Source of the DNA: Aphrocallistes beatrix
Lineage: Eukaryota; Porifera; Hexactinellida; Sceptrulophora; Aphrocallistidae
Assembly (NCBI GenBank): GCA_963281255.1
Contig: OY725488.1
Span: 7,599,524-7,663,523 of the forward strand
Length of the DNA stretch: 64,000 bases
Direction: 5' to 3'
The position numbers and the translations under genes were made by a program. The notes under the pieces are model-generated. The model was not told where the DNA came from, searched no databases, and was given only the letters and a program-made list of their open reading frames with translations. The number at the start of each line of letters is the position of its first letter. Within the stretch, counting starts at the first letter, position 1. Positions 1-62,124 of this stretch are shown here, piece after piece.

Positions 1-3000
1 ACTGATCGAAATGTATAACCCAAAATACCCATTCTCTACATAATGCCACAGCACACCCAGTGGTGGACTGATCGAAAAGTATAACCCAAAATACCCATTC
101 TCTACATAATGCCACAGGACAACCAGTGGTGGACTGATCGAAAAGCATAACCCAAAATACCCATTCTCTACATAATGCCACAGGACAACCAGTGGTGGAC
201 TGATCGAAAAGTATAACCCAAAATACCCATTCTCTACATAATGCCACAGGACAACCAGTAGTGGACTGATCGAAAAGTATAACCCAAAATGCCCGTTCTC
301 TACATAATGCCACAGGACACCCAGTGGTGGACTGATCGAAAAGTATAACCCAAAATACCCATTCTCTACATAATGCCACAGGACAACCAGTAGTGGACTG
401 ATCGAAAAGTATAACCCAAAATGCCCATTCTCTACATAATGCCACGGGCCACCAGTGGTGGACTGATCGAAAAGTATAACCCAAAATGCCCGTTCGACAA
501 ATAATGCCACAGGACACCAAGTGGTAGACTGATCGATAAATATAACCCAAATGCCCGTTCTCTTCATAATGCCACAGGACACCAAGTGGTAGACTGATCG
601 ATAAATATAACCCAAATGCCCGTTCTCTACATAATGCCACAGGACAACCAGTGGTGGACTGATCGAAAAGTATAACCCAAAATGCCCGTTCTCTACATAA
701 TGCCACAGGACACCCAGTGGTGGACTAATCGAAAAGTATAACCCAAAATGCCCGTTCTCTACATAATGCCACAGGACACCCAGTGGTGGACTGATCGAAA
801 AGTATAACCCAAAATACCCGTTCTCTACATAATGCCACAGGACACCCAGAGGTGGACTGATCGAAAAGTATAACCCAAAATGCCCATTCTCTACATAATG
901 CCACAGGCCACCAGTGGTGGACTGATCGAAAAGTATAACCCAAAATGCCCGTTCGACAAATAATGCCACAGGACACCAAGTGGTAGACTGATCGATAAAT
1001 ATAACCCAAATGCCCGTTCTCTTCATAATGCCACAGGACACCAAGTGGTAGACTGATCGATAAATATAACCCAAATGCCCGTTCTCTACATAATGCCACA
1101 GGACAACCAGTGGTGGACTGATCGAAAAGTATAACCCAAAATGCCCATTCTCTACATAATGCCAGAGGACAACCAGTGGTGGACTGGTCGAAAAGTATAA
1201 CCCAAAAATACCAATTCTCTACATAATGCCACAGCACACCCAGTGGTGGGGTAATCGAAAAGTATAACCCAAATGTCCGTTCTCTACATAATACCACAGG
1301 ACAACCAGTGGTGGACTGATCGAAAAGTATAACCCAAAATGCCCGTTCTCTACATAATGCCACAGGACACCCAGTGGTGGACTGATCGAAATGTATAACC
1401 CAAAATACCCATTCTCTACATAATGCCACAGCACACCCAGTGGTGGACTGATCGAAAAGTATAACGCAAAATACCCATTCTCTACATAATGCCACAGGAC
1501 AACCAGTGGTGGACTGATCGAAAAGCATAACCCAAAATACCCATTCTCTACATAATGCCACAGGACAACCAGTGGTGGACTGATCGAAAAGTATAACCCA
1601 AAATACCCATTCTCTACATAATGCCACAGGACAACCAGTAGTGGACTGATCGAAAAGTATAACCCAAAATGCCCGTTCTCGACATAATGCCACAGGACAC
1701 CCAGTGGTGGACTGATCGAAAAGTATAACCCAAAATACCCGTTCTCTACATAATGCCACAGGACACCCAGTGGTGGACTGATCGAAAAGTATAACCCAAA
1801 ATGCCCGTTCGACACATAATGCCACAGGACACCAAGTGGTAGACTGATCGATAAATATAACCCAAATGCCAGTTCTCTACATAATGCCACAGGACACCAA
1901 GTGGTAGACTGATCGATAAATATAACCCAAATGCCCGTTATCTACATAATGCCACAGGACAACCAGTGGTGGACTGATCGAAAAGTATAACCCAAAATAC
2001 CCGTTCTCTACATATTGCCACAGGACACCAAGTGGTAGACTGATCGATAAATATAACCCAAATGCCCGTTCTCTACATAATGCCACAGGACAACCAGTGG
2101 TGGACTGATCGAAAAGTATAACCCAAAATGCCCGTTCTCTACATAATGCCACAGGACACCCAGTGGTGGACTGATCGAAATGTATAACCCAAAATACCCA
2201 TTCTCTACATAATGCCACAGCACACCCAGTGGTGGACTGATCGAAAAGTATAACGCAAAATACCCATTCTCTACATAATGCCACAGGACAACCAGTGGTG
2301 GACTGATCGAAAAGCATAACCCAAAATACCCATTCTCTACATAATGCCACAGGACACCCAGTGGTGGACTGATCGAAAAGTATAACCCAAAATACCCGTT
2401 CTCTACATAATGCCACAGGACACCCAGAGGTGGACTGATCGAAAAGTATAACCCAAAATGCCCCTTCTCTACATAATGCCACAGGCCACCAGTGGTGGAC
2501 TGATCGAAAAGTATAACCCAAAATGCCCGTTCGACAAATAATGCCACAGGACACCAAGTGGTAGACAGATCGATAAATATAACCCAAATGCCCGTTCTCT
2601 TCATAATGCCACAGGACACCAAGTGGTAGACTGATCGATAAATATAACCCAAATGCCCGTTCTCTTCATAATGCCACAGGACACCAAGTGGTAGACTGAT
2701 CGATAAATATAACCCAAATGCCCGTTCTCTACATAATGCCACAGGACAACCAGTGGTGGACTGATCGAAAAGTATAACCCAAAATGCCCGTTCTCTACAT
2801 AATGCCACAGGACACCCAGTGGTGGACTAATCGAAATGTATAACCCAAAATACCCATTCTCTACATAATGCCACAGCACACCCAGTGGTGGACTGATCGA
2901 AAAGTATAACGCAAAATACCCATTCTCTACATAATGCCACAGGACAACCAGTGGTGGACTGATCGAAAAGTATAACCCAAATAGCCCGTTCTCGACATAA

Positions 3001-6000
3001 TGCCACAGGACACCCAGTGGTGGACTGATCGAAAAGTATAACCCAAAATACCCGTTCTCTACATAATGCCACAGGACACCCAGTGGTGGACTGATCGAAA
3101 AGTATAACCCAAAATGCCCGTTCGACACATAATGCCACATGACACCAAGTGGTAGACTGATCAATAAATATAACCCAAATGCCCGTTCTCTACATAATGC
3201 CACAGGACAACCAGTGGTGGACTGATCGAAAAGTATAACCCAAAATGCCCGTTCTCTACATAATGCCACAGGACACCCAGTGGTGGACTGATCGAAAAGT
3301 ATAACCCAAAATACCCGTTCTCTACATAATGCCACAGGACACCCAGAGGTGGACTGATCGAAAAGTATAACCCAAAATGCCCATTCTCTACATAATGCCA
3401 CAGGCCACCAGTGGTGGACTGATCGAAAAGTATAACCCAAAATGCCCGTTCGACAAATAATGCCACAGGACACCAAGTGGTAGACTGATCGATAAATATA
3501 ACCCAAATGCCCGTTCTCTTCATAATGCCACAGGACACCAAGTGGTAGACTGATCGATAAATATAACCCAAATGCCCGTTCTCTACATAATGCCACAGGA
3601 CAACCAGTGGTGGACTGATCGAAAAGTATAACCCAAAATGCCCATTCTCTACATAATGCCAGAGGACAACCAGTGGTGGACTGGTCGAAAAGTATAACCC
3701 AAAAATACCAATTCTCTACATAATGCCACAGCACACCCAGTGGTGGGGTAATCGAAAAGTATAACCCAAATGTCCGTTCTCTACATAATACCACAGGACA
3801 ACCAGTGGTGGACTGGTCGAAAAGTATAACCCAAAAATACCAATTCTCTACATAATGCCACAGCACACCCAGTGGTGGGGTAATCGAAAAGTATAACCCA
3901 AATGTCCGTTCTCTACATAATACCACAGGACAACCAGTGGTGGACTGATCGAAAAGTATAACCCAAAATGCCCGTTCTCTACATAATGCCACAGGACACC
4001 CAGTGGTGGACTGATCGAAATGTATAACCCAAAATACCCATTCTCTACATAATGCCACAGCACACCCAGTGGTGGACTGATCGAAAAGTATAACGCAAAA
4101 TACCCATTCTCTACATAATGCCACAGGACAACCAGTGGTGGACTGATCGAAAAGCATAACCCAAAATACCCATTCTCTACATAATGCCACAGGACAACCA
4201 GTGGTGGACTGATCGAAAAGTATAACCCAAAATACCCATTCTCTACATAATGCCACAGGACAACCAGTAGTGGACTGATCGAAAAGTATAACCCAAAATG
4301 CCCGTTCTCGACATAATGCCACAGGACACCCAGTGGTGGACTGATCGAAAAGTATAACCCAAAATACCCGTTCTCTACATAATGCCACAGGACACCCAGT
4401 GGTGGACTGATCGAAAAGTATAACCCAAAATGCCCGTTCGACACATAATGCCACAGGACACCAAGTGGTAGACTGATCGATAAATATAACCCAAATGCCA
4501 GTTCTCTACATAATGCCACAGGACACCAAGTGGTAGACTGATCGATAAATATAACCCAAATGCCCGTTATCTACATAATGCCACAGGACAACCAGTGGTG
4601 GACTGATCGAAAAGTATAACCCAAAATACCCGTTCTCTACATATTGCCACAGGACACCAAGTGGTAGACTGATCGATAAATATAACCCAAATGCCCGTTC
4701 TCTACATAATGCCACAGGACAACCAGTGGTGGACTGATCGAAAAGTATAACCCAAAATGCCCGTTCTCTACATAATGCCACAGGACACCCAGTGGTGGAC
4801 TGATCGAAATGTATAACCCAAAATACCCATTCTCTACATAATGCCACAGCACACCCAGTGGTGGACTGATCGAAAAGTATAACGCAAAATACCCATTCTC
4901 TACATAATGCCACAGGACAACCAGTGGTGGACTGATCGAAAAGCATAACCCAAAATACCCATTCTCTACATAATGCCACAGGACACCCAGTGGTGGACTG
5001 ATCGAAAAGTATAACCCAAAATACCCGTTCTCTACATAATGCCACAGGACACCCAGAGGTGGACTGATCGAAAAGTATAACCCAAAATGCCCCTTCTCTA
5101 CATAATGCCACAGGCCACCAGTGGTGGACTGATCGAAAAGTATAACCCAAAATGCCCGTTCGACAAATAATGCCACAGGACACCAAGTGGTAGACAGATC
5201 GATAAATATAACCCAAATGCCCGTTCTCTTCATAATGCCACAGGACACCAAGTGGTAGACTGATCGATAAATATAACCCAAATGCCCGTTCTCTTCATAA
5301 TGCCACAGGACACCAAGTGGTAGACTGATCGATAAATATAACCCAAATGCCCGTTCTCTACATAATGCCACAGGACAACCAGTGGTGGACTGATCGAAAA
5401 GTATAACCCAAAATGCCCGTTCTCTACATAATGCCACAGGACACCCAGTGGTGGACTAATCGAAATGTATAACCCAAAATACCCATTCTCTACATAATGC
5501 CACAGCACACCCAGTGGTGGACTGATCGAAAAGTATAACGCAAAATACCCATTCTCTACATAATGCCACAGGACAACCAGTGGTGGACTGATCGAAAAGT
5601 ATAACCCAAATAGCCCGTTCTCGACATAATGCCACAGGACACCCAGTGGTGGACTGATCGAAAAGTATAACCCAAAATACCCGTTCTCTACATAATGCCA
5701 CAGGACACCCAGTGGTGGACTGATCGAAAAGTATAACCCAAAATGCCCGTTCGACACATAATGCCACATGACACCAAGTGGTAGACTGATCAATAAATAT
5801 AACCCAAATGCCCGTTCTCTACATAATGCCACAGGACAACCAGTGGTGGACTGATCGAAAAGTATAACCCAAAATGCCCGTTCTCTACATAATGCCACAG
5901 GACACCCAGTGGTGGACTGATCGAAAAGTATAACCCAAAATACCCGTTCTCTACATAATGCCACAGGACACCCAGAGGTGGACTGATCGAAAAGTATAAC

Positions 6001-7950
6001 CCAAAATGCCCATTCTCTACATAATGCCACAGGCCACCAGTGGTGGACTGATCGAAAAGTATAACCCAAAATGCCCGTTCGACAAATAATGCCACAGGAC
6101 ACCAAGTGGTAGACTGATCGATAAATATAACCCAAATGCCCGTTCTCTTCATAATGCCACAGGACACCAAGTGGTAGACTGATCGATAAATATAACCCAA
6201 ATGCCCGTTCTCTACATAATGCCACAGGACAACCAGTGGTGGACTGATCGAAAAGTATAACCCAAAATGCCCATTCTCTACATAATGCCAGAGGACAACC
6301 AGTGGTGGACTGGTCGAAAAGTATAACCCAAAAATACCAATTCTCTACATAATGCCACAGCACACCCAGTGGTGGGGTAATCGAAAAGTATAACCCAAAT
6401 GTCCGTTCTCTACATAATACCACAGGACAACCAGTGGTGGACTGATCGAAAAGTATAACCCAAAATGCCCGTTCTCTACATAATGCCACAGGACACCCAG
6501 TGGTGGACTGATCGAAATGTATAACCCAAAATACCCATTCTCTACATAATGCCACAGCACACCCAGTGGTGGACTGATCGAAAAGTATAACGCAAAATAC
6601 CCATTCTCTACATAATGCCACAGGACAACCAGTGGTGGACTGATCGAAAAGCATAACCCAAAATACCCATTCTCTACATAATGCCACAGGACAACCAGTG
6701 GTGGACTGATCGAAAAGTATAACCCAAAATACCCATTCTCTACATAATGCCACAGGACAACCAGTAGTGGACTGATCGAAAAGTATAACCCAAAATGCCC
6801 GTTCTCGACATAATGCCACAGGACACCCAGTGGTGGACTGATCGAAAAGTATAACCCAAAATACCCGTTCTCTACATAATGCCACAGGACACCCAGTGGT
6901 GGACTGATCGAAAAGTATAACCCAAAATGCCCGTTCGACACATAATGCCACAGGACACCAAGTGGTAGACTGATCGATAAATATAACCCAAATGCCAGTT
7001 CTCTACATAATGCCACAGGACACCAAGTGGTAGACTGATCGATAAATATAACCCAAATGCCCGTTATCTACATAATGCCACAGGACAACCAGTGGTGGAC
7101 TGATCGAAAAGTATAACCCAAAATACCCGTTCTCTACATATTGCCACAGGACACCAAGTGGTAGACTGATCGATAAATATAACCCAAATGCCCGTTCTCT
7201 ACATAATGCCACAGGACAACCAGTGGTGGACTGATCGAAAAGTATAACCCAAAATGCCCGTTCTCTACATAATGCCACAGGACACCCAGTGGTGGACTGA
7301 TCGAAATGTATAACCCAAAATACCCATTCTCTACATAATGCCACAGCACACCCAGTGGTGGACTGATCGAAAAGTATAACGCAAAATACCCATTCTCTAC
7401 ATAATGCCACAGGACAACCAGTGGTGGACTGATCGAAAAGCATAACCCAAAATACCCATTCTCTACATAATGCCACAGGACACCCAGTGGTGGACTGATC
7501 GAAAAGTATAACCCAAAATACCCGTTCTCTACATAATGCCACAGGACACCCAGAGGTGGACTGATCGAAAAGTATAACCCAAAATGCCCCTTCTCTACAT
7601 AATGCCACAGGCCACCAGTGGTGGACTGATCGAAAAGTATAACCCAAAATGCCCGTTCGACAAATAATGCCACAGGACACCAAGTGGTAGACAGATCGAT
7701 AAATATAACCCAAATGCCCGTTCTCTTCATAATGCCACAGGACACCAAGTGGTAGACTGATCGATAAATATAACCCAAATGCCCGTTCTCTTCATAATGC
7801 CACAGGACACCAAGTGGTAGACTGATCGATAAATATAACCCAAATGCCCGTTCTCTACATAATGCCACAGGACAACCAGTGGTGGACTGATCGAAAAGTA
7901 TAACCCAAAATGCCCGTTCTCTACATAATGCCACAGGACACCCAGTGGTG
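1..7950. repeat. Satellite domain A: HOR of 2,497-2,629 bp
   Basis: Identical ordered blocks recur at 1,219-1,890, 3,848-4,519 and 6,345-7,016, and again at 1,877-2,587, 4,506-5,216 and 7,003-7,713. The spacing is 2,629 bp for the first interval and 2,497 bp for the second. The 132-bp difference is two monomers, visible as a tandem duplication just before 3,848 (about 3,716-3,847). Copies are nearly base-identical, which indicates recent amplification or homogenisation. Confidence 0.9.
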
Positions 7951-10900
7951 GACTAATCGAAATGTATAACCCAAAATACCCATTCTCTACATAATGCCAC
8001 AGCACACCCAGTGGTGGACTGATCGAAAAGTATAACGCAAAATACCCATTCTCTACATAATGCCACAGGACAACCAGTGGTGGACTGATCGAAAAGTATA
8101 ACCCAAATAGCCCGTTCTCGACATAATGCCACAGGACACCCAGTGGTGGACTGATCGAAAAGTATAACCCAAAATACCCGTTCTCTACATAATGCCACAG
8201 GACACCCAGTGGTGGACTGATCGAAAAGTATAACCCAAAATGCCCGTTCGACACATAATGCCACAGGACACCAAGTGGTAGACTGATCAATAAATATAAC
8301 CCAAATGCCCGTTCTCTACATAATGCCACAGGACAACCAGTGGTGGACTGATCGAAAAGTATAACCCAAAATGCCCGTTCTCTACATAATGCCACAGGAC
8401 ACCCAGTGGTGGACTGATCGAAATGTATAACCCAAAATACCCATTCTCTACATAATGCCACAGCACACCCAGTGGTGGACTGATCGAAAAGTATAACGCA
8501 AAATACCCATTCTCTACATAATGCCACAGGACAACCAGTGGTGGACTGATCGAAAAGCATAACCCAAAATACCCATTCTCTACATAATGCCACAGGACAA
8601 CCAGTGGTGGACTGATCGAAAAGTATAACCCAAAATACCCATTCTCTACATAATGCCACAGGACAACCAGTGGTGGACTGATCGAAAAGTATAACCCAAA
8701 ATACCCATTCTCTACATAATGCCACAGCACACCCAGAGGTGGACTGATCGAAAAGTATAACGCAAAATACCCATTCTCTACATAATGCCACAGGACAATC
8801 AGTGGTGGACTGATCGAAAAGCATAACCCAAAATACCCATTCTCTACATAATGCCACAGGACAACCAGTGGTGGACTGATGGAAAAGTATAACTCAAAAT
8901 ACCCATTCTCTACATAATGCCACAGGACAACCAGTGGTGGACTGATCGAAAAGTATAACCCAAAATGCCCGTTCTCGACATAATGCCACAGGACACCCAG
9001 TGGTGGACTGATCGAAAAGTATAACCCAAAATACCCGTTCTCTACATAATGCCACAGGACACCTAGTGGTGGACTGATCGAAAAGTATAACCCAAAATGC
9101 CCGTTCGACACATAATGCCACAGGACACCAAGTGGTAGACTGATCGATAAATATAACCCAAATGCCAGTTCTCTACATAATGCCACAGGACACCAAGTGG
9201 TAGACTAATCGATAAATATAACCCAAATGCCCGTTATCTACATAATGCCACAGGACAACCAGTGGTGGATTGATCGAAAAGTATAACCCAAAATACCCGT
9301 TCTCTACATAATGCCACAGGACACCAAGTGGTAGACTGATCGATAAATATAACCCAAATGCCCGTTCTCTACATAATGCCACAGGACAACCAGTGGTGGA
9401 CTGATCGAAAAGTATAACCCAAAATGCCCGTTCTCTACATAATGCCACAGGACACCCAGTGGTGGACTGATCGAAATGTATAACCCAAAATACCCATTCT
9501 CTACATAATGTCACAGCACACCCAGTGGTGGACTGATCGAAAAGTATAACGCAAAATACCCATTCTCTACATAATGCCACAGGACAACCAGTGGTGGACT
9601 GATCGAAAAGCATAACCCAAAATACCCATCCTCTACATAATGCCACAGGACAACCAGTGGTGGACTGATCGAAAAGTATAACCCAAAATACCCATTCTCT
9701 ACATAATGCCACAGGACAACCAGTGGTGGACTGATCGAAAAGTATAACCCACAATGCCCGTTCTCTACATAATGCCACAGGACAACCAGTGGTGGACTGA
9801 TCGAAAAGTATAACCCAAAATGCCCGTTCTCTACATAATGCCACAGGACACCCAGTGGTGGACTGATCGAAATGTATAACCCAAAATACCCATTCTCTAC
9901 ATAATGCCACAGGACAACCAGTGGTGGACTGATCGAAAAGTATAACCCAAAATGCCCGTTCTCTACATAATGCCACAGGACAACCAGTGGTGGACTGATC
10001 GAAAAGTATAACCCAAAATGCCCGTTCTCTACATAATGCCACAGGACACCCAGTGGTGGACTGATCGAAATGTATAACCCAAAATACCCGTTCTCGACAT
10101 AATGCCACAGGACACCCAGTGGTGGACTGATCGAAAAGTATAACCCAAAATACCCGTTCTCTACATAATGCCACAGGACACCCAGTGGTGGACTGATCGA
10201 AAAGTATAACCCAAAATGCCCGTTCGACACATAATGCCACAGGACACCAAGTGGTAGACTGATCGATAAATATAATCCAAATGCCAGTTCTCTACATAAT
10301 GCCACAGGACACCAAGTGGTAGACTGATCGATAAATATAACCCAAATGCCCGTTATCTACATAATGCCACAGGACAACCAGTGGTGGATTGATCGAAAAG
10401 TATAACCCAAAATACCCGTTCTCTACATAATGCCACAGGACACCAAGTGGTAGACTGATCGATAAATATAACCCAAATGCCCGTTCTCTACATAATGCCA
10501 CAGGACACCCAGTGGTGGACTGATCGAAATGTATAACCCAAAATACCCATTCTCTACATAATGCCACAGCACACCCAGTGGTGGACTGATCGAAAAGTAT
10601 AACCCAAAATGCCCGTTCTCTACATAATGCCACAGGACACCCAGTGGTGGACTGATCGAAATGTATAACCCAAAATACCCATTCTCTACATAATGCCACA
10701 GCACACCCAGTGGTGGACTGATCGAAAAGTATAACCCAAAATACCCATTCTCTACATAATGCCACAGGACACCCAGTGGTGGACTGATCGAAATGTATAA
10801 CCCAAAATACCCGTTCTCTACATAATGCCACAGGACACCCAGTGGTGGACTGATCGAAAAGTATAACCCAAAATACCCGTTCTCTACATAATGCCACAGG

Positions 10901-11170: not shown

Positions 11171-14100
11171 GTAGACTGATCGATAAATATAGCCCAAATG
11201 CCCGTTATCTACATAATGCCACAGGACAACCAGTGGTGGACTGATCGAAAAGTATAACCCAAAATACCCATTCTCTACATAATGCCACAGGACAACCAGT
11301 GGTGTACTGATCGAAAAGTATAACCCAAAATACACATTCTCTACATAATGCCACAGGACAACCAGTGGTGGACTGATCGAAAAGTATAACCCAAAATGCC
11401 CGTTCTCTACATAATGCCACAGGACACCCAGTGGTGGACTGATCGAAAAGTATAACCCAAAATACCCATTCTCTACATAATGGCACAGGACAACCAGTGG
11501 TGGACTGATCGAAAAGTATAACCCAAAATGCCCGTTCTCGACATAATGCCACAGGACACCCAGTGGTGGACTGATCGAAAAGTATAACGCAAAATACCCG
11601 TTCTCTACATAATGCCACAGGACACCCAGTGGTGGACTGATCGAAAAGCATAACCCAAAATACCCATTCTCTACATAATGCCACAGGACAACCAGTGGTG
11701 GACTGATCGAAAAGTATAACCCAAAATACCCATTCTCTACATAATGCCACAGGACAACCAGTTGTGTACTGATCGAAAAGTATAACCCAAAATACACATT
11801 CTCTACATAATGCCACAGGACAACCAGTGGTGGACTGATCGAAAAGTATAACCCAAAATGCCCGTTCTCTACATAATGCCACAGGACACCCAGTGGTGGA
11901 CTGATCGAAAAGTATAACCCAAAATACCCATTCTCTACATAATGGCACAGGACAACCAGTGGTGGACTGATCGAAAAGTATAACCCAAAATGCCCGTTCT
12001 CGACATAATGCCACAGGACACCCAGTGGTGGACTGATCGAAAAGTATAACGCAAAATACCCGTTCTCTACATAATGCCACAGGACACCCAGTGGTGGACT
12101 GATCGAAAAGCATAACCCAAAATACCCATTCTCTACATAATGCCACAGGACAACCAGTGGTGGACTGATCGAAAAGTATAACCCAAAATACCCATTCTCT
12201 ACATAATGCCACAGGACAACCAGTGGTGGACTGATCGAAAAGTATAACCCAAAATGCCCATTCTCTACATAATGCGACAGTCACCAGTGGTGGACTGATC
12301 GAAAAGTATAACCCAAAATGCCCGTTTGACACATAATGCCACAGGACACCAAGTGGTAGACTGATCGATAAATATAACCCAAATGCCAGTTCTCTACATA
12401 ATGCCACAGGACACCAAGTGGTAGACTGATCGATAAATATAACCCAAATGCCCGTTATCTACATAATGCCACAGGACAACCAGTGGTGGACTGATCGAAA
12501 AGTATAACCCAAAATACCCGTTCTCTACATAATGCCACAGGACACCAAGTGATAGACTGATCGATAAATATAACCCAAATGCCCGTTCTCTACATAATGC
12601 CACAGGACAACCAGTGGTGGACTGATCGAAAAGTATAACGCAAAATACCCATTCTCTACATAATGCCACAGGACAACCAGTGGTGGACCGATCGAAAAGT
12701 ATAACCCAAAATGCCCATTCTCTACATAATGCCACAGGCCACCAGTGGTGGACTGATCGAAAAGTATCACCCAAATACCCGTTCTCTATATTATGCCACA
12801 GGACACCCAGTGGAGGACTGATCGAAAAGTATAACCCAAAATGCCCATTCTCTACATAATGCCAGAGGACAACCAGTGGTGGACTGGTCGAAAAGTATAA
12901 CCCAAAAATACCAATTCTCTACATAATGCCACAGCACACCCAGTGGTGGGGTAATCGAAAAGTATAACCCAAATGTCCGTTCTCTACATAATGCCACAGG
13001 ACACCCAGTGGTGGACTGATCGAAAAGTATAACCCAAAATACCCGTTCTCTACATAATGCCACAGGACACCAAGTGATAGACTGATCGATAAATATAACC
13101 CAAATGCCCGTTCTCTACATAATGCCACAGGACAACCAGTGGTGGACTGATCGAAAAGTATAACGCAAAATACCCATTCTCTACATAATGCCACAGGCCA
13201 CCAGTGGTGGACTGATCGAAAAGTATCACCCAAATACCCGTTCTCTATATTATGCCACAGGACACCCAGTGGAGGACTGATCGAAAAGTATAACCCAAAA
13301 TGCCCATTCTCTACATAATGCCAGAGGACAACCAGTGGTGGACTGGTCGAAAAGTATAACCCAAAAATACCAATTCTCTACATAATGCCACAGCACACCC
13401 AGTGGTGGGGTAATCGAAAAGTATAACCCAAATGTCCGTTCTCTACATAATGCCACAGGACAACCAGTGGTGGACTGATCGAAAAGTATAACTCAAAATA
13501 CCCATTCTCTACATAATGCCACAGGACAACCAGTGGTGGACTGATCGAAAAGTATAACCCAAAATACCCATTCTCTACATAATGCCACAGGACAACCAGT
13601 GGTGGACTGATCGAAAAGTATAACCCAAAATGCCCGTTCTCGACATAATACCACAGGACACCCAGTGGTGGACTGATCTTAAAGTATAACCCAAAATACC
13701 CGTTCTCTACATAATGCCACAGGACACCCAGTGGTGGACTGATCGATAAATATAACCCAAATGCCAGTTCTCTACATAATGCCACAGGACACCAAGTGGT
13801 AGACTGATCGATAAATATAACCCAAATGCCAGTTCTCTACATAATCCCACAGGACACCAAGTGGTAGACTGATCGATAAATATAGCCCAAATGCCCGTTA
13901 TCTACATAATGCCACAGGACAACCAGTGGTGGACTGATCGAAAAGTATAACCCAAAATACCCATTCTCTACATAATGCCACAGGACAACCAGTGGTGTAC
14001 TGATCGAAAAGTATAACCCAAAATACACATTCTCTACATAATGCCACAGGACAACCAGTGGTGGACTGATCGAAAAGTATAACCCAAAATACCCATTCTC

Positions 14101-17100: not shown

Positions 17101-17450
17101 TATAACGCAAAATACCCGTTCTCTACATAATGCCACAGGACACCCAGTGGTGGACTGATCGAAAAGCATAACCCAAAATACCCATTCTCTACATAATGCC
17201 ACAGGACAACCAGTGGTGGACTGATCGAAAAGTATAACCCAAAATACCCATTCTCTACATAATGCCACAGGACAACCAGTGGTGGACTGATCGAAAAGTA
17301 TAACCCAAAATGCCCATTCTCTACATAATGCGACAGTCACCAGTGGTGGACTGATCGAAAAGTATAACCCAAAATGCCCGTTTGACACATAATGCCACAG
17401 GACACCAAGTGGTAGACTGATCGATAAATATAACCCAAATGCCAGTTCTC
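11170..17450. repeat. Satellite domain C1: HOR of 2,297 bp
   Basis: Matching blocks at 12,394 and 14,691, 13,250 and 15,547, 13,378 and 15,675, and 13,837 and 16,134 are all 2,297 bp apart. Diagnostic variants include ATGGCACAGG (11,481; 11,943), GTATCACCCAAATACCC, CTATATTATGCC and GATCTTAAAG. Within 11.2-12.3 kb a shorter internal duplication is also visible. Confidence 0.85.
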
Positions 17451-20400: not shown

Positions 20401-20600
20401 GTTCTCTACATAATGCCACAGGACACCAAGTGATAGACTGATCGATAAATATAACCCAAATGCCCGTTCTCTACATAATGCCACAGGACAACCAGTGGTG
20501 GACTGATCGAAAAGTATAACGCAAAATACCCATTCTCTACATAATGCCACAGGCCACCAGTGGTGGACTGATCGAAAAGTATCACCCAAATACCCGTTCT
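17450..20600. repeat. Satellite domain C2: HOR of 1,904 bp
   Basis: Ordered variant blocks at 17,450/19,354, 17,511/19,415, 18,045/19,949, 18,173/20,077 and 18,702/20,606 are all exactly 1,904 bp apart. The private variant GGACTACCAGTGG (about 17,597 and 19,501) is present once in each copy. The repeat re-uses C1-type variants in a different order. Confidence 0.85.
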
Positions 20601-30215: not shown

Positions 30216-33200
30216 CACCAAGTGGTAGACTGATCGATAAATATAGCCCAAATGCCCGTTATCTACATAATGCCACAGGACAACCAGTGGTGGACTGATC
30301 GAAAAGTATAACCCAAAATACCCATTCTCTACATAATGCCACAGGACAACCAGTGGTGTACTGATCGAAAAGTATAACCCAAAATACACATTCTCTACAT
30401 AATGCCACAGGACAACCAGTGGTGGACTGATCGAAAAGTATAACCCAAAATGCCCGTTCTCTACATAATGCCACAGGACACCCAGTGGTGGACTGATCGA
30501 AAAGTATAACCCAAAATACCCATTCTCTACATAATGCCACAGGACAACCAGTGGTGGACTGATCGAAAAGTATAACCCAAAATGCCCGTTCTCTACATAA
30601 TGCCACAGGACAACCAGTGGTGGACTGATCGAAAAGTATAACCCAAAATGCCCGTTCTCTACATAATGCCACAGGACACCAAGTGGTGGACTGATCGAAA
30701 AGTATAACCCAAAATGCCCGTTCGACACATAATGCCACAGGACACCAAGTGGTAGACTGATCGATAAATATAATCCAAATGCCAGTTCTCTACATAATGC
30801 CACAGGACACCAAGTGGTAGACTGATCGATAAATATAACCCAAATGCCCGTTATCTACATAATGCCACAGGACAACCAGTGGTGGATTGATCGAAAAGTA
30901 TAACCCAAAATACCCGTTCTCTACATAATGCCACAGGACACCAAGTGGTAGACTGATCGATAAATATAACCCAAATGCCCGTTCTCTACATAATGCCACA
31001 GGACACCCAGTGGTGGACTGATCGAAATGTATAACCCAAAATACCCATTCTCTACATAATGCCACAGCACACCCAGTGGTGGACTGATCGAAAAGTATAA
31101 CCCAAAATGCCCGTTCTCTACATAATGCCACAGGACACCCAGTGGTGGACTGATCGAAAAGTATAACCCAAAATACCCGTTCTCTACATAATGCCACAGG
31201 ACAACCAGTGGTGGACTGATCGAAAAGTATAACCCAAAATACCCATTCTCTACATAATGCCACAGGACAACCAGTGGTGTACTGATCGAAAAGTATAACC
31301 CAAAATACACATTCTCTACATAATGCCACAGGACAACCAGTGGTGGACTGATCGAAAAGTATAACCCAAAATGCCCGTTCTCTACATAATGCCACAGGAC
31401 ACCCAGTGGTGGACTGATCGAAAAGTATAACCCAAAATACCCATTCTCTACATAATGGCACAGGACAACCAGTGGTGGACTGATCGAAAAGTATAACCCA
31501 AAATGCCCGTTCTCGACATAATGCCACAGGACACCCAGTGGTGGACTGATCGAAAAGTATAACGCAAAATACCCGTTCTCTACATAATGCCACAGGACAC
31601 CCAGTGGTGGACTGATCGAAAAGCATAACCCAAAATACCCATTCTCTACATAATGCCACAGGACAACCAGTGGTGGACTGATCGAAAAGTATAACCCAAA
31701 ATACCCATTCTCTACATAATGCCACAGGACAACCAGTTGTGTACTGATCGAAAAGTATAACCCAAAATACACATTCTCTACATAATGCCACAGGACAACC
31801 AGTGGTGGACTGATCGAAAAGTATAACCCAAAATGCCCGTTCTCTACATAATGCCACAGGACACCCAGTGGTGGACTGATCGAAAAGTATAACCCAAAAT
31901 ACCCATTCTCTACATAATGGCACAGGACAACCAGTGGTGGACTGATCGAAAAGTATAACCCAAAATGCCCGTTCTCGACATAATGCCACAGGACACCCAG
32001 TGGTGGACTGATCGAAAAGTATAACGCAAAATACCCGTTCTCTACATAATGCCACAGGACACCCAGTGGTGGACTGATCGAAAAGCATAACCCAAAATAC
32101 CCATTCTCTACATAATGCCACAGGACAACCAGTGGTGGACTGATCGAAAAGTATAACCCAAAATACCCATTCTCTACATAATGCCACAGGACACCCAGTG
32201 GTGGACTGATCGAAATGTATAACCCAAAATACCCGTTCTCTACATAATGCCACAGGACACCCAGTGGTGGACTGATCGAAAAGTATAACCCAAAATACCC
32301 GTTCTCTACATAATGCCACAGGACACCCAGTGGTGGACTGATCGAAAAGTATAACCCAAAATGCCCATTCTCTACATAATGCGACAGTCACCAGTGGTGG
32401 ACTGATCGAAAAGTATAACCCAAAATGCCCGTTTGACACATAATGCCACAGGACACCAAGTGGTAGACTGATCGATAAATATAACCCAAATGCCAGTTCT
32501 CTACATAATGCCACAGGACACCAAGTGGTAGACTGATCGATAAATATAACCCAAATGCCAGTTCTCTACAAAATGCCACAGGACACCAAGTGGTAGACTG
32601 ATCGATAAATATAGCCCAAATGCCCGTTATCTACATAATGCCACAGGACAACCAGTGGTGGACTGATCGAAAAGTATAACCCAAAATACCCATTCTCTAC
32701 ATAATGCCACAGGACAACCAGTGGTGTACTGATCGAAAAGTATAACCCAAAATACACATTCTCTACATAATGCCACAGGACAACCAGTGGTGGACTGATC
32801 GAAAAGTATAACCCAAAATGCCCGTTCTCTACATAATGCCACAGGACACCCAGTGGTGGACTGATCGAAAAGTATAACCCAAAATACCCATTCTCTACAT
32901 AATGGCACAGGACAACCAGTGGTGGACTGATCGAAAAGTATAACCCAAAATGCCCGTTCTCTACATAATGCCACAGGACACCCAGTGGTGGACTGATCGA
33001 AAAGTATAACCCAAAATACCCATTCTCTACATAATGGCACAGGACAACCAGTGGTGGACTGATCGAAAAGTATAACCCAAAATGCCCGTTCTCGACATAA
33101 TGCCACAGGACACCCAGTGGTGGACTGATCGAAAAGTATAACGCAAAATTCCCGTTCTCTACATAATGCCACAGGACACCCAGTGGTGGACTGATCGAAA

Positions 33201-35065
33201 AGCATAACCCAAAATACCCATTCTCTACATAATGCCACAGGACAACCAGTGGTGGACTGATCGAAAAGTATAACCCAAAATACCCATTCTCTACATAATG
33301 CCACAGGACAACCAGTTGTGTACTGATCGAAAAGTATAACCCAAAATACACATTCTCTACATAATGCCACAGGACAACCAGTGGTGGACTGATCGAAAAG
33401 TATAACCCAAAATGCCCGTTCTCTACATAATGCCACAGGACACCCAGTGGTGGACTGATCGAAAAGTATAACCCAAAATACCCATTCTCTACATAATGGC
33501 ACAGGACAACCAGTGGTGGACTGATCGAAAAGTATAACCCAAAATGCCCGTTCTCGACATAATGCCACAGGACACCCAGTGGTGGACTGATCGAAAAGTA
33601 TAACGCAAAATACCCGTTCTCTACATAATGCCACAGGACACCCAGTGGTGGACTGATCGAAAAGCATAACCCAAAATACCCATTCTCTACATAATGCCAC
33701 AGGACAACCAGTGGTGGACTGATCGAAAAGTATAACCCAAAATACCCATTCTCTACATAATGCCACAGGACACCCAGTGGTGGACTGATCGAAATGTATA
33801 ACCCAAAATACCCGTTCTCTACATAATGCCACAGGACACCCAGTGGTGGACTGATCGAAAAGTATAACCCAAAATACCCGTTCTCTACATAATGCCACAG
33901 GACACCCAGTGGTGGACTGATCGAAAAGTATAACCCAAAATGCCCATTCTCTACATAATGCGACAGTCACCAGTGGTGGACTGATCGAAAAGTATAACCC
34001 AAAATGCCCGTTTGACACATAATGCCACAGGACACCAAGTGGTAGACTGATCGATAAATATAACCCAAATGCCAGTTCTCTACATAATGCCACAGGACAC
34101 CAAGTGGTAGACTGATCGATAAATATAACCCAAATGCCAGTTCTCTACAAAATGCCACAGGACACCAAGTGGTAGACTGATCGATAAATATAGCCCAAAT
34201 GCCCGTTATCTACATAATGCCACAGGACAACCAGTGGTGGACTGATCGAAAAGTATAACCCAAAATACCCATTCTCTACATAATGCCACAGGACAACCAG
34301 TGGTGTACTGATCGAAAAGTATAACCCAAAATACACATTCTCTACATAATGCCACAGGACAACCAGTGGTGGACTGATCGAAAAGTATAACCCAAAATGC
34401 CCGTTCTCTACATAATGCCACAGGACACCCAGTGGTGGACTGATCGAAAAGTATAACCCAAAATACCCATTCTCTACATAATGGCACAGGACAACCAGTG
34501 GTGGACTGATCGAAAAGTATAACCCAAAATGCCCGTTCTCTACATAATGCCACAGGACACCCAGTGGTGGACTGATCGAAAAGTATAACCCAAAATACCC
34601 ATTCTCTACATAATGGCACAGGACAACCAGTGGTGGACTGATCGAAAAGTATAACCCAAAATGCCCGTTCTCGACATAATGCCACAGGACACCCAGTGGT
34701 GGACTGATCGAAAAGTATAACGCAAAATACCCGTTCTCTACATAATGCCACAGGACACCCAGTGGTGGACTGATCGAAAAGCATAACCCAAAATACCCAT
34801 TCTCTACATAATGCCACAGGACAACCAGTGGTGGACTGATCGAAAAGTATAACCCAAAATACCCATTCTCTACATAATGCCACAGGACAACCAGTGGTGG
34901 ACTGATCGAAAAGTATAACCCAAAATGCCCATTCTCTACATAATGCGACAGTCACCAGTGGTGGACTGATCGAAAAGTATAACCCAAAATGCCCGTTTGA
35001 CACATAATGCCACAGGACACCAAGTGGTAGACTGATCGATAAATATAACCCAAATGCCAGTTCTC
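30215..35065. repeat. Satellite domain D: HOR of 1,837 and 1,579 bp
   Basis: Blocks at 30,790, 32,627 and 34,206 start the same ordered series, at intervals of 1,837 and 1,579 bp. Those at 32,388/33,967 and 32,566/34,145 confirm the 1,579-bp period. The variant CTCTACAAAATGCC occurs once per unit (near 32,567 and 34,146). Confidence 0.82.
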
Positions 35066-37760: not shown

Positions 37761-39820
37761 TAATGCCACAGGACAACCAGTGGTTGGCCTGATCGAAAAG
37801 TATAACCCAAAATACCCATTCTCTACATAATGCCACAGGACAACCAGTGGTGGACTGATCGAAAAGTATAACCCAAAATACCCATTCTCTACATAATGCC
37901 ACAGGACAACCAGTGGTGGACTGATCGAAAAGTATAACCCAAAATGCCCGTTCTCTACATAATGCCACAGGACGCCAAGTGGTGAACTGATCGAAAAGTA
38001 TAACCCAAAATACCCATTCTCTACATAATGCCACAGCATACCCAGTGGTGGACTGATCGAAAAGTATAACCCAAAATGCCCGTTCTTTACATAATGCAAC
38101 AGGACACCCAGTGGTGGACTGATCGAAAAGTATAACCCAAAATGCCCATTCTCTACATAATGCCACAGGCCACCAGTGGTGGACTGATCGAAAGGTATAA
38201 CCCAAAATGCCCGTTCGACACATAATGCCACAGGACACCAAGTGGTAGACTGATCGATAAATATAACCCAAATGCCAGTTCTCTACATAATGCCACAGGA
38301 CACCCAGTGGTGGAATGATCGAAAAGTATAACCCAAAATGCCCATTCTCTACTTAATGCCACAGGCCACCAGTGGTGGACTGATCGAAAAGTATAACCCA
38401 AAATGCCCGTTCGACAAATAATGCCACAGGACACCAAGTGGTAGACTGATCGATAAATATAACCCAAATGCCCGTTCTCTACATAATGCCACAGGACACC
38501 AAGTGGTAGACTGATCGATAAATATAACCCAAAATGCCCGTTCTCTACATAATGCCACAGCACACCCAGTGGTGGACTGATCGAAAAGTATAACGCAAAA
38601 TACCATTCTCTACATAATGCCACAGGACAACCAGTGGTGGACTGATCGAAAAGCATAACCCAAAATATCCATTCTCTACATAATGCCACAGGACAACCAG
38701 TGGTGGACTGATCGAAAAGTATAACCCAAAATACCCATTCTCTACATAATGCCACAGGACAACCAGTGGTGGACTGATCGAAAAGTATAACCCAAAATGC
38801 CCGTTCTCTACATAATGCCACAGGACACCCAGTGGTGGACTGATCGAAAAGTATAACCCAAAATACCCGTTCTCTAAATAATGCCACAGGGCACCCAGTG
38901 GTGGACTGATCGAAAAGTATAACCCAAAATGCCCATTCTCTACATAATGCGACAGTCACCAGTGGTGGAATGATCGAAAAGTATAACCCAAAATGCCCAT
39001 TCTCTACATAATGCCACACGACAACCAGTGGTGGACTGATTGAAAAGTATAACCCAAAATGCCCGTTCTCTACATAATGCCACAGGACACCAAGTGGTAG
39101 ACTGATCGATAAATATAACCCAAATGCCCGTTATCTACATAATGCCAAAGGACAACCAGTGGTGGACTGATCGAAAAGTATAACCCAAAATACCCATTCT
39201 ATACATAATGCCACAGGACAACCAGTGGTGGACTGATCGAAAAGTATAACCCAAAATACACATTCTCTACATAATGCCACAGGACAACCAGTGGTGGACT
39301 GATCGAAAAGTATAACCCAAAATGCCCGTTCTCTACATAATGCCACAGCACACCCAGTGGTGGACTGATCGAAAAGTATAACCCAAAATGCCCGTTCTCT
39401 ACATAATGCAACAGGACACCCAGTGGTGGACTGATCGAAAAGTATAACCCAAAATGCCCATTCTCTACATAATGCCACAGGCCACCAGTGGTGGACTGAT
39501 CGAAAAGTATAACCCAAAATGCCCGTTCGACACGTAATGCCACAGGCCACCAGTGGTGGACTGATCGAAAAGTATAACCCAAAATGCCCGTTCGACACAT
39601 AATGCCACAGGACACCAAGTGGTAGACTGATCGATAAATGTAACCCAAATGCCCGTTCGACACATAATGCCACAGGACACCCAGTGGTGAACTGATCGAA
39701 AAGTATAACCCAAAATGCCCATTCTCCACATAATGCCACAGGACACCCAGTGGAGGACTGATCGAATAGTATAACCCAAAATGCCCATTCTCTACATAAT
39801 GCCACAGGACAACCAGTGGT
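37760..39820. repeat. Satellite domain G: divergent monomers without clear HOR
   Basis: Monomers here carry many private changes, for example GGTTGGCCTGATC near 37,782, GGACGCCAAGTGG near 37,971, CTTTACATAATGCAAC near 38,085, CTACTTAATGCC near 38,349 and CGACACGTAATGCC near 39,528. I found no long exact period. Divergent monomers without an HOR are usually older, less homogenised satellite. Confidence 0.65.
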
Positions 39821-42800
39821 GGACTTATCGAAAAGTATCACCCAAAATACCCGTTCTCTACATTATGCCACAGGACACCCAGTGGTAGACTGATCGATAA
39901 ATATAACCCAAATGCCCGTTCTCTACATAATGCCACAGGACAACCAGTGGTGGACTGATCGAAAAGTATATGCCATAATGCCCGTTCTCTACATAATGCC
40001 ACAGGACACCCAGTGGTGGACTGATCGAAAAGTATAACCCAAAATGCCCATTCTCTACATAATGCCACAGGACACCAAGTGGTAGACTGATCGATAAATA
40101 TAACCCAAATGCCCGTTCTCTACATAATGCCACAGGACACCAAGTGGTAGACTGATCGATAAATATAACCCAAATGCCCGTTATCTACATAATGCCACAG
40201 GATAACCAGTGGTGGACTGATCAAAAGCATAACCCAAAATACCCATTCTCTACATAATGCCACAGGACAACCAGTGGTGGACTGATCGAAAAGTATAACC
40301 CAAAATACCCATTCTCTACATAACGCCACAGGACAACCAGTGGTGGACTGATCGAAAAGTATAACCCAAAATACCCGTTCTCTACATAATGCCACAGGAC
40401 ACCCAGTGGTGGACTGATCGAAAAGTATATTCCAAAATACCCGTTCTCTACATAATGCCACAGGGCGCCAAGTGGTGGACTGATCGAAAAGTATAACCCA
40501 AAATGCCCATTCTCTACATAATGCCACAGGACAACCAGTGGTGGATTGATCGAAAAGTATAACCCAAAATGCCCGTTCTCTACATAATGCCACAGGACAC
40601 CCAGTGGTGGATTGATCGAAAAGTATAACCCAAAATGCCCGTTCTCTACATAATGCCACAGGACACCCAGTGGTGGACTGATCGAGAAGTATAACCCAAA
40701 ATACCCGTTCTCTACATAATGCCACAGGACACCCAGTGGTGGACTGATCGAAAAGTATAACCCAAAATGCCCATTCTCTACATAATGCCACAGGCCACCA
40801 GTGGTGGACTGATCGAAAAGTATAACCCAAAATACCCGTTCTCTACATAATGCCACAGGACACCAAGTGGTAGACTGATCGATAAATGTAACCCAAATGC
40901 CCGTTCGACACATAATGCCACAGGACACCCAGTGGTGAACTGATCGAAAAGTATAACCCAAAATGCCCATTCTCCACATAATGCCACAGGACACCCAGTG
41001 GAGGACTGATCGAATAGTATAACCCAAAATGCCCATTCTCTACATAATGCCACAGGACAACCAGTGGTGGACTTATCGAAAAGTATCACCCAAAATACCC
41101 GTTCTCTACATTATGCCACAGGACACCCAGTGGTAGACTGATCGATAAATATAACCCAAATGCCCGTTCTCTACATAATGCCACAGGACAACCAGTGGTG
41201 GACTGATCGAAAAGTATATGCCATAATGCCCGTTCTCTACATAATGCCACAGGACACCCAGTGGTGGACTGATCGAAAAGTATAACCCAAAATGCCCATT
41301 CTCTACATAATGCCACAGGACACCAAGTGGTAGACTGATCGATAAATGTAACCCAAATGCCCGTTCGACACATAATGCCACAGGACACCCAGTGGTGAAC
41401 TGATCGAAAAGTATAACCCAAAATGCCCATTCTCCACATAATGCCACAGGACACCCAGTGGAGGACTGATCGAATAGTATAACCCAAAATGCCCATTCTC
41501 TACATAATGCCACAGGACAACCAGTGGTGGACTTATCGAAAAGTATCACCCAAAATACCCGTTCTCTACATTATGCGACAGGACACCCAGTGGTAGACTG
41601 ATCGATAAATATAACCCAAATGCCCGTTCTCTACATAATGCCACAGGACAACCAGTGGTGGACTGATCGAAAAGTATATGCCATAATGCCCGTTCTCTAC
41701 ATAATGCCACAGGACACCCAGTGGTGGACTGATCGAAAAGTATAACCCAAAATGCCCATTCTCTACATAATGCCACAGGACACCAAGTGGTAGACTGATC
41801 GATAAATATAACCCAAATGCCCGTTCGACACATAATGCCACAGGACACCCAGTGGTGAACTGATCGAAAAGTATAACCCAAAATGCCCATTCTCCACATA
41901 ATGCCACAGGATAACCAGTGGTGGACTGATCAAAAGCATAACCCAAAATACCCATTCTCTACATAATGCCACAGGACAACCAGTGGTGGACTGATCGAAA
42001 AGTATAACCCAAAATACCCATTCTCTACATAACGCCACAGGACAACCAGTGGTGGACTGATCGAAAAGTATAACCCAAAATACCCGTTCTCTACATAATG
42101 CCACAGGACACCCAGTGGTGGACTGATCGAAAAGTATATTCCAAAATACCCGTTCTCTACATAATGCCACAGGGCGCCAAGTGGTGGACTGATCGAAAAG
42201 TATAACCCAAAATGCCCATTCTCTACATAATGCCACAGGACAACCAGTGGTGGATTGATCGAAAAGTATAACCCAAAATGCCCGTTCTCTACATAATGCC
42301 ACAGGACACCCAGTGGTGGATTGATCGAAAAGTATAACCCAAAATGCCCGTTCTCTACATAATGCCACAGGACACCCAGTGGTGGACTGATCGAGAAGTA
42401 TAACCCAAAATACCCGTTCTCTACATAATGCCACAGGACACCCAGTGGTGGACTGATCGAAAAGTATAACCCAAAATGCCCATTCTCTACATAATGCCAC
42501 AGGCCACCAGTGGTGGACTGATCGAAAAGTATAACCCAAAATACCCGTTCTCTACATAATGCCACAGGACACCAAGTGGTAGACTGATCGATAAATGTAA
42601 CCCAAATGCCCGTTCGACACATAATGCCACAGGACACCCAGTGGTGAACTGATCGAAAAGTATAACCCAAAATGCCCATTCTCCACATAATGCCACAGGA
42701 CACCCAGTGGAGGACTGATCGAATAGTATAACCCAAAATGCCCATTCTCTACATAATGCCACAGGACAACCAGTGGTGGACTTATCGAAAAGTATCACCC

Positions 42801-44378
42801 AAAATACCCGTTCTCTACATTATGCCACAGGACACCCAGTGGTAGACTGATCGATAAATATAACCCAAATGCCCGTTCTCTACATAATGCCACAGGACAA
42901 CCAGTGGTGGACTGATCGAAAAGTATATGCCATAATGCCCGTTCTCTACATAATGCCACAGGACACCCAGTGGTGGACTGATCGAAAAGTATAACCCAAA
43001 ATGCCCATTCTCTACATAATGCCACAGGACACCAAGTGGTAGACTGATCGATAAATATAACCCAAATGCCCGTTCTCTACATAATGCCACAGGACACCAA
43101 GTGGTAGACTGATCGATAAATATAACCCAAATGCCCGTTATCTACATAATGCCACAGGATAACCAGTGGTGGACTGATCAAAAGCATAACCCAAAATACC
43201 CATTCTCTACATAATGCCACAGGACAACCAGTGGTGGACTGATCGAAAAGTATAACCCAAAATACCCATTCTCTACATAACGCCACAGGACAACCAGTGG
43301 TGGACTGATCGAAAAGTATAACCCAAAATACCCGTTCTCTACATAATGCCACAGGACACCCAGTGGTGGACTGATCGAAAAGTATATTCCAAAATACCCG
43401 TTCTCTACATAATGCCACAGGGCGCCAAGTGGTGGACTGATCGAAAAGTATAACCCAAAATGCCCATTCTCTACATAATGCCACAGGACAACCAGTGGTG
43501 GATTGATCGAAAAGTATAACCCAAAATGCCCGTTCTCTACATAATGCCACAGGACACCCAGTGGTGGATTGATCGAAAAGTATAACCCAAAATGCCCGTT
43601 CTCTACATAATGCCACAGGACACCCAGTGGTGGACTGATCGAGAAGTATAACCCAAAATACCCGTTCTCTACATAATGCCACAGGACACCCAGTGGTGGA
43701 CTGATCGAAAAGTATAACCCAAAATGCCCATTCTCTACATAATGCCACAGGCCACCAGTGGTGGACTGATCGAAAAGTATAACCCAAAATACCCGTTCTC
43801 TACATAATGCCACAGGACACCAAGTGGTAGACTGATCGATAAATATAACCCAAATGCCCGTTATCTACATAATGCCACAGGATAACCAGTGGTGGACTGA
43901 TCAAAAGCATAACCCAAAATACCCATTCTCTACATAATGCCACAGGACAACCAGTGGTGGACTGATCGAAAAGTATAACCCAAAATACCCATTCTCTACA
44001 TAACGCCACAGGACAACCAGTGGTGGACTGATCGAAAAGTATAACCCAAAATACCCGTTCTCTACATAATGCCACAGGACACCCAGTGGTGGACTGATCG
44101 AAAAGTATAATCCAAAATACCCGTTCTCTACATAATGCCACAGGGCGCCAAGTGGTGGACTGATCGAAAAGTATAACCCAAAATGCCCATTCTCTACATA
44201 ATGCCACAGGACAACCAGTGGTGGACTGATCGAAAAGTATAACCTAAAATAATCATTCTCTACATAATGCCACAGGATACCCAGTGGAGGACTGATCGAA
44301 AAGTATAACACAAAATACCCATTCTCTACATAATGCCACAGGACGCCCAGTGGTGGACTGATCGAAAAGTATAACCCA
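39820..44378. repeat. Satellite domain H: 1,248/1,709-bp HOR and array edge
   Basis: The marker GGACTTATCG followed by AGTATCACCC occurs at 39,821, 41,069, 41,529 and 42,778, giving intervals of 1,248, 460 and 1,249 bp. The large block 40,120-40,830 recurs at 43,077-43,787 (2,957 bp) and partly at 41,763-42,539. From about 44,240 the last monomers accumulate changes (ATAATCATTC, GGATACCCAGTGGAGG, AACACAAAATACC), and the homology stops inside a monomer at ATAACCCA. Confidence 0.8.
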
Positions 44379-44504: not shown

Positions 44505-44507
44505 TAT

Positions 44508-62122: not shown

Positions 62123-62124
62123 TA

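What the first reader, a model, noticed from the sequence alone, without database searches (positions are those of the whole stretch)
1..44378. A 44-kb satellite whose HOR period changes domain by domain
One 66-bp family carries at least nine different HOR periods (2,629/2,497, 2,297, 1,904, 985, 1,578, 1,837/1,579, 723, 523, 1,248/1,709 bp), each supported by several markers at identical spacing. Domains re-use the same monomer variants in new orders. This is a fossil record of successive local amplifications, like layered expansion at animal centromeres but with a much shorter monomer than alpha satellite.
Basis: seen in the sequence. Interest (0 to 1): 0.72.

Follow-up and report, generated by a model that had tools for sequence, protein, structure and literature searches.

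The report
Satellite arrays led by tRNA-like repeats
A 45-kb stretch of short repeated DNA in an unnamed small animal genome grew by many separate local duplications, and it belongs to a family of arrays that, where seen, nearly always sit just after a block of tRNA-like repeats, which points to a common repeat unit rather than to a centromere.

Summary
The array is real. It is one 66-bp satellite family of about 683 monomers, from 379 bp before the window to base 44378. Ten of the twelve quoted periods are clear; 523 and 1837 bp are weak. But these "HORs" are mostly single tandem duplications of up to 40 monomers, seen twice and at most three times; seven exact runs span 1.5-2.6 kb. A toy model of random segment duplication and deletion gives a similar picture. 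The layered-amplification reading holds; the centromere comparison is not supported.

The larger finding lies outside the coordinates. The array follows a 136-bp tRNA-like (A-box/B-box) tandem repeat on the same strand. Of 29 clusters of this satellite family found in the genome, 27 have such a head 0-701 bp upstream on the same strand. Two heads without a near satellite hit predicted two more long arrays (about 59 and 77 kb): 7 of 7 probes hit. Of 12 heads lacking this satellite, 8 lead into a different ~31-bp repeat, 6 with its exact core. The head is constant and the satellite varies. How the unit spreads is unresolved: no transposase, terminal inverted repeat or target duplication was found.

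The parts
1..44378 (+). 66-bp satellite array, part inside the window (the first 379 bp lie upstream, C1:7599145-7599523)
   Evidence: TRF; 683 monomers
1183..8215 (+). Three-copy block: 40 monomers 1183-3811, identical copy 3812-6440 (lag 2629), third partial copy from 6309 (lag 2497, 29 monomers)
   Evidence: exact monomer runs
11900..16493 (+). Two identical copies of 35 monomers (lag 2297)
17154..20961 (+). Two identical copies of 29 monomers (lag 1904)
26943..30098 (+). Two identical copies of 24 monomers (lag 1578)
31611..34702 (+). Two copies of 23 identical monomers at lag 24 (1579 bp)
39626..43830 (+). Interleaved duplications with lags 1709, 1248 and 2957 bp
44379..44896 (+). Right flank of the unit, shared piecewise with C7 (L020) and C13 (L021) copies
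   Evidence: pairwise alignments
44508..44579 (-). Inverted tRNA-like copy just past the array (Rfam tRNA 23.6 bits, below the gathering score of 29)
   Evidence: its upstream counterpart (3 units, + strand) is outside the window at L009:9022-9365

Best explanation
The array is the overgrown tail of a dispersed composite repeat: a tandem block of 127/136-bp tRNA-like units (the head), a spacer (about 190-550 bp in 22 of 27 cases), then a tandem satellite (the tail) on the same strand. SHOWN: head and tail are paired in fixed order and orientation at nearly all loci found; tails range from 5 monomers to about 683 here, and to about 1,100 by inference in the longest array; some heads carry an unrelated repeat instead. 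INFERRED: the unit was dispersed as a non-autonomous element or by segmental duplication, and each tail then evolved on its own by tandem duplication and deletion of multi-monomer segments (unequal sister exchange or replication restart). The patchwork of 'HOR periods' is the by-product: each period is one recent duplication, overwritten by later ones.
For: 22 of 22 fetched loci (home plus L020-L040, chosen because both parts were seen there) have head(+) then satellite(+). Over the search hits, merged by hand, 27 of 29 satellite clusters have a same-strand head 0-701 bp upstream; the two exceptions are an inverted fragment (C13:4249921) and a 132-bp fragment (C6:4162432, surroundings not fetched). 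Predictive test: heads at C1:6520910(+) and C1:7899400(-) had their nearest listed satellite hits about 13 and 78 kb away; 7 of 7 200-bp probes 0.7-64 kb 3' of them are satellite in the predicted orientation. Three small fetches made before the prediction were satellite too. 8 of 12 remaining heads lead into a ~31-bp repeat; its exact core is in 6 of those 12 probes, and a slightly looser core pattern was found in no other held locus (363,958 letters held in all, overlaps counted). Monomers are more alike within a locus (mean 0.865) than between loci (0.745), as local homogenisation predicts. Exact two-copy runs and a toy duplication/deletion model account for the periods.
Against: Unit ends are ragged: different pairs of loci share different lengths of flank, and no TIR, target duplication or transposase belonging to the unit was found, so 'mobile element' is not proven. 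2 of 12 probed heads showed no repeat (L054, L060), one (L062) only a degenerate one, one (L057) a ~39-bp repeat of unclear kinship, and 2 of the 8 '31-bp' probes (L052, L058) are loose variants. Loci are clustered (C1 6.31-10.37 Mb, C3 0.97-2.94 Mb; uniform P 4.5e-5 and 2.7e-4), which segmental duplication explains at least as well as transposition. Model settings were picked by hand with 8 runs each, and no one setting matched both the run coverage and the number of monomer types. The ~59-kb and ~77-kb spans rest on probes and scattered hits, not on continuous sequence. The genome searches score only the best candidates, so all cluster counts are lower bounds.
Confidence: 0.72

Rival explanations
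1. The array (with the ~59-kb and ~77-kb arrays at C1 6.52-6.58 and 7.82-7.90 Mb) is centromeric or pericentromeric satellite DNA of this 12.5-Mb contig, and the tRNA-like heads act as chromatin borders as tRNA genes do at fission yeast centromeres.
For: Three long arrays within 1.4 Mb near the middle of C1. Four of five loci of the 66-bp subfamily have tRNA-like copies facing inwards on both sides. tRNA gene clusters border centromere domains in fission yeasts (PMC6538654, passages read).
Against: Genes lie close on both sides. Many short arrays occur on several contigs. Rfam gives no tRNA above gathering score in the window or in 14 loci, so these do not look like intact tRNA genes. No chromatin data.
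Confidence: 0.12
2. The tRNA-like head drives tail growth: assembled Pol III factors stall replication forks, and repeated restart duplicates the DNA just beyond the head, whatever its sequence. (Compatible with the best explanation; it adds a cause.)
For: Heads precede at least two unrelated repeats. A- and B-box columns are better conserved between loci than the rest (0.917 against 0.847; 2 of 100 circular shifts reach this, one being the true position). A T-run follows some units (two of the three home units).
Against: The conservation signal is modest: the B box ranks 4th and the A box 18th of 90 windows. Heads also precede tiny tails. Shared descent of a whole composite explains the pairing without any causal role. 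No expression data.
Confidence: 0.15
3. The duplicated blocks are assembly artefacts (mis-joined or doubled segments).
For: Seven runs are letter-identical over 1.5-2.6 kb.
Against: Shorter exact runs of 9-14 monomers recur at many longer distances, as nested older events would leave. A second long array also shows changing spacing: the same triplet of hits recurs at offsets of 1664, 2638, 1597 and 6128 bp. The ends are non-repeat flanks with genes on one contig.
Confidence: 0.1

Closest known systems
Helitron-associated satellites of the oyster Crassostrea gigas (PMC8268682, passages read)
   Same: Satellite arrays sit inside elements that share end boxes; eleven satDNAs examined there were linked to Helitron parts; some occur with a box on one side only; scattered over chromosomes.
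   Different: Here the constant part is a tandem tRNA-like block on one side; Helitron ends were neither identified nor properly tested.
Tetris foldback transposon and TIR-220 satellite of Drosophila virilis (PMC4079207, abstract and part 1 of the Discussion read)
   Same: Non-autonomous composite whose internal tandem repeats expanded in place into satellite arrays; unequal exchange proposed.
   Different: Tetris arrays of up to 66 copies arose from repeats inside TIRs, with 8-10 bp target duplications; here about 683 monomers, a tRNA-like head, no TIR or duplication shown.
SINE-derived satellites of squamate reptiles (PMC10702118, abstract only)
   Same: SINE material linked to tandem arrays.
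   Different: There the satellite is cut from the SINE itself; here the tail is a separate repeat next to the tRNA-like head.
SVA-type composite retrotransposons (recalled; only a search listing seen)
   Same: A Pol III-derived (Alu-like) part, then a variable-number tandem repeat.
   Different: No poly-A tail, SINE-R part or target duplication shown here; tails are far longer.
Alpha-satellite HOR arrays (recalled)
   Same: Monomers of one family grouped in larger units.
   Different: Alpha HOR units recur in many near-identical copies; here most occur twice.

Membership tests
Centromeric HOR satellite (alpha-like) | Higher-order unit repeated many times head to tail | tested here: not met
   Largest exact tandem series is 2 copies (maxcopies 2.0), 3 if the 2629/2497 series is counted
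Centromeric HOR satellite (alpha-like) | CENP-A chromatin, one region per chromosome | not testable with these tools
   No chromatin data; satellite hits on 6 contigs and heads on 9 of 28, but searches score few candidates and miss very common words
Centromeric HOR satellite (alpha-like) | Gene-poor surroundings | tested here: not met
   Pfam-recognised frames within 30 kb upstream and 20 kb downstream
Foldback transposon (Tetris-like) | Long inverted repeats carrying the tandem repeats | tested here: inconclusive
   Inverted tRNA-like copy downstream at 4 of 5 loci of the 66-bp subfamily and at L034; inverted satellite at L039; not seen in the fetched stretch of the other 16 of 22 loci
Foldback transposon (Tetris-like) | Target-site duplication and transposase | tested here: inconclusive
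   None seen by eye at the ends inspected; no coding frame judged to belong to the unit in L027, L034 and L037
Helitron-associated satellite | 5' TC and 3' CTRR end with hairpin, insertion between A and T (recalled) | not tested
   Outer ends of the unit could not be fixed
tRNA gene | Score above Rfam gathering for RF00005 | tested here: not met
   Window copy 23.6 against 29 bits; none in 14 loci; ARAGORN, bacterial code, none in window 44000-64000 or L009-L011
tRNA-like Pol III promoter | A box and B box | tested here: met
   Consensus TGGCCGAGTGG and GGTTCGAATCC over 98 units of 22 loci; box names recalled; activity untested
Dispersed satellite with common flank | Same flanking module next to arrays at many loci | tested here: met
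   27 of 29 clusters found

The most novel reading that the evidence does not exclude
The tRNA-like block is a cis-acting satellite nucleator: wherever it lands, the DNA on its 3' side is turned into and kept as a tandem array, irrespective of sequence. One element would thus explain several unrelated satellites of a genome (66-70 bp, ~31 bp, perhaps ~39 bp).
Probability: 0.15. Interest if true: 0.85.

Novelty: new variant of a known kind. Interest (0 to 1): 0.55.

Why it matters
How satellites start and why they appear where they do is an open question. Here the start point seems marked: a recognisable tRNA-like head on one side, tails from 5 to several hundred monomers (about 1,100 inferred) on the other, and different tails behind the same kind of head. 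That makes origin, polarity and growth of arrays testable by comparing individuals. It also warns against reading 'HOR' and 'centromere' from period spectra: random single duplications yield similar domains.

Tried and rejected
Rejected: an autonomous element inside the unit. Reading frames in L027, L034 and L037 gave satellite read-through, other short frames without a recognised gene and, by eye, a Tc1/mariner-like frame in L034; L024 also has a Tc1-like frame of 330 aa. Both look like separate insertions. That family name is recalled; no family search was run on any of these frames.

Rejected: a giant repetitive protein from the open minus-strand frame. The 189 65-bp monomers break the frame.

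Paper searches for a tRNA-like head before satellites showed nothing of the kind in the titles and abstract starts listed; only the four papers named in the full report were opened, so this is no proof of absence. (pairwise scan of near-identical segments) timed out and was replaced by the monomer-code scan. Searches stopped on script errors and were rerun.

Dropped or merged before counts: hits were merged by hand into 41 head and 29 satellite clusters, some spans being extended by probes. Of the 41 heads, 27 have a same-strand satellite, 1 (C13:3523104) is an inverted copy facing one, 1 (C1:7006864) is an inverted copy without one, and 12 were probed. In one search each locus gave at most 12 monomers. 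Heads were found by similarity to three queries (L009, window 44379-44700, L036), satellites by five (window, L037, L036, L049, L035).

Full report
WHERE IT IS. The window is bases 7599524-7663523 of contig C1 (12.53 Mb) of a 100.5-Mb genome in 28 contigs. Genes on both sides look animal: integrin beta, anillin, a nucleoporin, cyclophilin and RRM frames, fumarase and FN3 domains upstream; IFT46, RRP4, an L24e-like protein, an NHL protein, a NAP fragment and two Ets domains downstream.

THE ARRAY. TRF reports one array, 1-44378, period 66. It starts 379 bp before the window (L009:9622) and is complete on the contig. A wraparound alignment splits it into 683 monomers, 125 of them distinct; mean pairwise identity of the 682 full ones is 0.909.

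THE PERIODS. The spectrum of exact 40-mers shows the quoted spacings domain by domain. In blocks of 20 monomers, identity at the best lag reaches 0.97-1.00 in the main domains, against 0.949 as the maximum over 200 draws from permuted arrays; several blocks between the domains do not exceed that maximum. Coding monomers by exact sequence gives runs of 40 at lag 40, 35 at 35, 29 at 29, 24 at 24, 23 at 24, and 29 at lag 38; the longest run in 200 permuted orders (lags below 120) is 4. A run as long as its lag is a single tandem duplication. Only the 2629/2497 series has a third, partial copy. At 985, 1709 and 1248 bp the runs are 9, 17 and 10 monomers, about half to two thirds of the lag. 84% of monomers lie in some exact run of 5 or more, including runs of 10-14 monomers separated by 9-23 kb, read here as older events. 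523 and 1837 bp are weak.

A SIMPLE MODEL. Starting from 28 monomers, random tandem duplications and deletions of up to 45 monomers plus mutation were run at 8 hand-picked settings (four mutation rates, segment limits of 20 or 45), 8 runs each. With the limit of 45, at mutation 0.001 and 0.002 the means are 13.1 and 11.0 distinct dominant lags (13 seen), exact-run coverage 0.81 and 0.72 (0.84 seen), 82 and 141 monomer types (125 seen), 5.9 and 4.6 tandem periods (4 seen) and about two copies per period (2.0 seen). Neither of these two settings matches everything: coverage 0.84 lies in the range of runs only at 0.001 (0.72-0.89), 125 types only at 0.002 (123-160). Segments limited to 20 monomers did not give the observed 40-monomer runs in the examples printed. 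The pattern does not need a function, but the model was not fitted.

THE HEAD. Just upstream are 3.5 copies of a 136-bp repeat with the A-box and B-box of a tRNA-type promoter; a run of five T follows two of the three full home units. It is tRNA-like, not a tRNA gene: Rfam scores 23.6 bits at the window copy against 29 required, no family passes its gathering score in the window or in 14 other loci, and ARAGORN (bacterial code) finds none. One inverted copy lies past the array at 44508-44579.

HEAD AND TAIL ELSEWHERE. Searches of the own genome with satellite and head gave 29 satellite and 41 head clusters after hand merging; the searches score only their best candidates, so these are lower bounds. 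27 of 29 satellite clusters have a head on the same strand 0-701 bp upstream. Profile scans of 22 loci chosen for having both parts show head(+) then satellite(+) in 22 of 22; 4 of 5 loci of the 66-bp subfamily (home, L020, L021, L023; not L022) also have an inverted head copy downstream. Apart from the home array, tails of these loci are 5-32 monomers.

TWO PREDICTIONS. First, the heads at C1:6520910(+) and C1:7899400(-) had no listed satellite hit nearer than about 13 and 78 kb, while small fetches beside those distant hits (6533000, 6568000, 7821700) were all satellite without a head. If each array runs back to its head, the gaps should be satellite. Probes at C1:6522300, 6545000, 6558000, 7835000, 7860000, 7885000 and 7898500 were satellite in the expected orientation, 7 of 7, and one search then listed scattered hits from 6522281 to 6576988. 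So two further arrays of about 59 and 77 kb are likely, though not read through. In the first, one triplet of hits recurs at offsets of 1664, 2638, 1597 and 6128 bp, so changing higher-order spacing is not special to the home array. Second, 12 further heads were probed with 130 bp each. Six carry the exact core of a ~31-bp tandem repeat and two (L052, L058) a loose variant; one has a ~39-bp repeat with weak likeness to the 66-bp family (L057); one is a degenerate 66-bp relative (L062); two show no repeat (L054, L060). The 31-bp and 66-bp units are no more alike than shuffled sequence (286 of 300 shuffles score as high), and the 31-bp core pattern occurs in no other held locus (363,958 letters held in all, window, probes and overlaps included). 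I had expected the 66-bp family there, so the second repeat was a surprise.

IS THE HEAD FUNCTIONAL? Over 98 units of 22 loci, box columns average 0.917 between-locus identity against 0.847 for the rest of the first 100 columns; 2 of 100 circular shifts do as well, one of which is the true position. The B box ranks 4th of 90 windows, the A box 18th. This is suggestive only.

IS IT A MOBILE ELEMENT? Unresolved. Flanks are shared over varying lengths. One copy on C3 matches C7 at 97.6% over the 632 bp at its left edge. In the 66-bp subfamily the right flank ends near the same point in home, L020 and L021. No TIR, target duplication or own coding frame was found. The left edge shared with L021 (about L009:8550-8557) falls within about 30 bp of the 5' end of a minus-strand FN3 frame (L009:7985-8581), as if a gene had been cut there. 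Clustering on C1 and C3 would fit local duplication.

CENTROMERE? Not shown. Genes on both flanks, and the absence of C1 5.12-9.21 Mb from the 150 scored RVT_1 matches of 713 candidates, argue against a classic pericentromere, but three long arrays near mid-contig keep the idea alive. The search skips very common words: the 77-kb array did not appear when queried with its own sequence. Absence from other contigs therefore proves nothing.

PAPERS. PMC4079207: abstract and part 1 of the Discussion. PMC6538654 and PMC8268682: passages. PMC10702118: abstract and outline. Other papers were seen only as search listings. SVA and alpha-satellite statements are recalled.

VERDICT. The new part is the head-tail rule and its two different tails.

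Noticed in passing
L051, L053, L055, L056, L059, L061 (loose variants in L052, L058): A second, unrelated ~31-bp repeat with core AAACTGGTCAAACCGG behind tRNA-like heads on C1, C3, C6, C13, C15 and C16.
   Followed up: partly
C1:6522142-6581286 and C1:7821444-7898699: Two more long arrays of the same satellite family (about 59 and 77 kb), inferred from probes and scattered hits.
   Followed up: partly
L009:7985-8581 (-): A fibronectin type III frame begins within about 30 bp of the left shared edge of the repeat unit, as if a gene had been cut by it.
   Followed up: no
genome-wide; e.g. C3 1.4-3.1 Mb, C12 3.9-4.3 Mb; window 51695-53707: NHL-repeat proteins are very numerous (3391 candidate sites in the first look, 150 scored and listed) and look strongly clustered.
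   Followed up: no
L029:1-1874: A 41-bp satellite at 98% matches, running off the fetched end (C3:1467000), near a head-tail unit.
   Followed up: no
window about 44993-45170; also L022, L025, L026, L032, L034, L037: A dispersed repeat with a 140-141-bp internal period lies within a few kb of several units.
   Followed up: no
window 44900-44980: GC-rich sequence with short inverted repeats (CGCTTCGCTTGCTTGCGC...) just past the shared right flank; the stretch around it also matches L021 and L022.
   Followed up: no
window 45180-55335: Seven mostly intronless-looking reading frames in 10 kb, all on the + strand.
   Followed up: no
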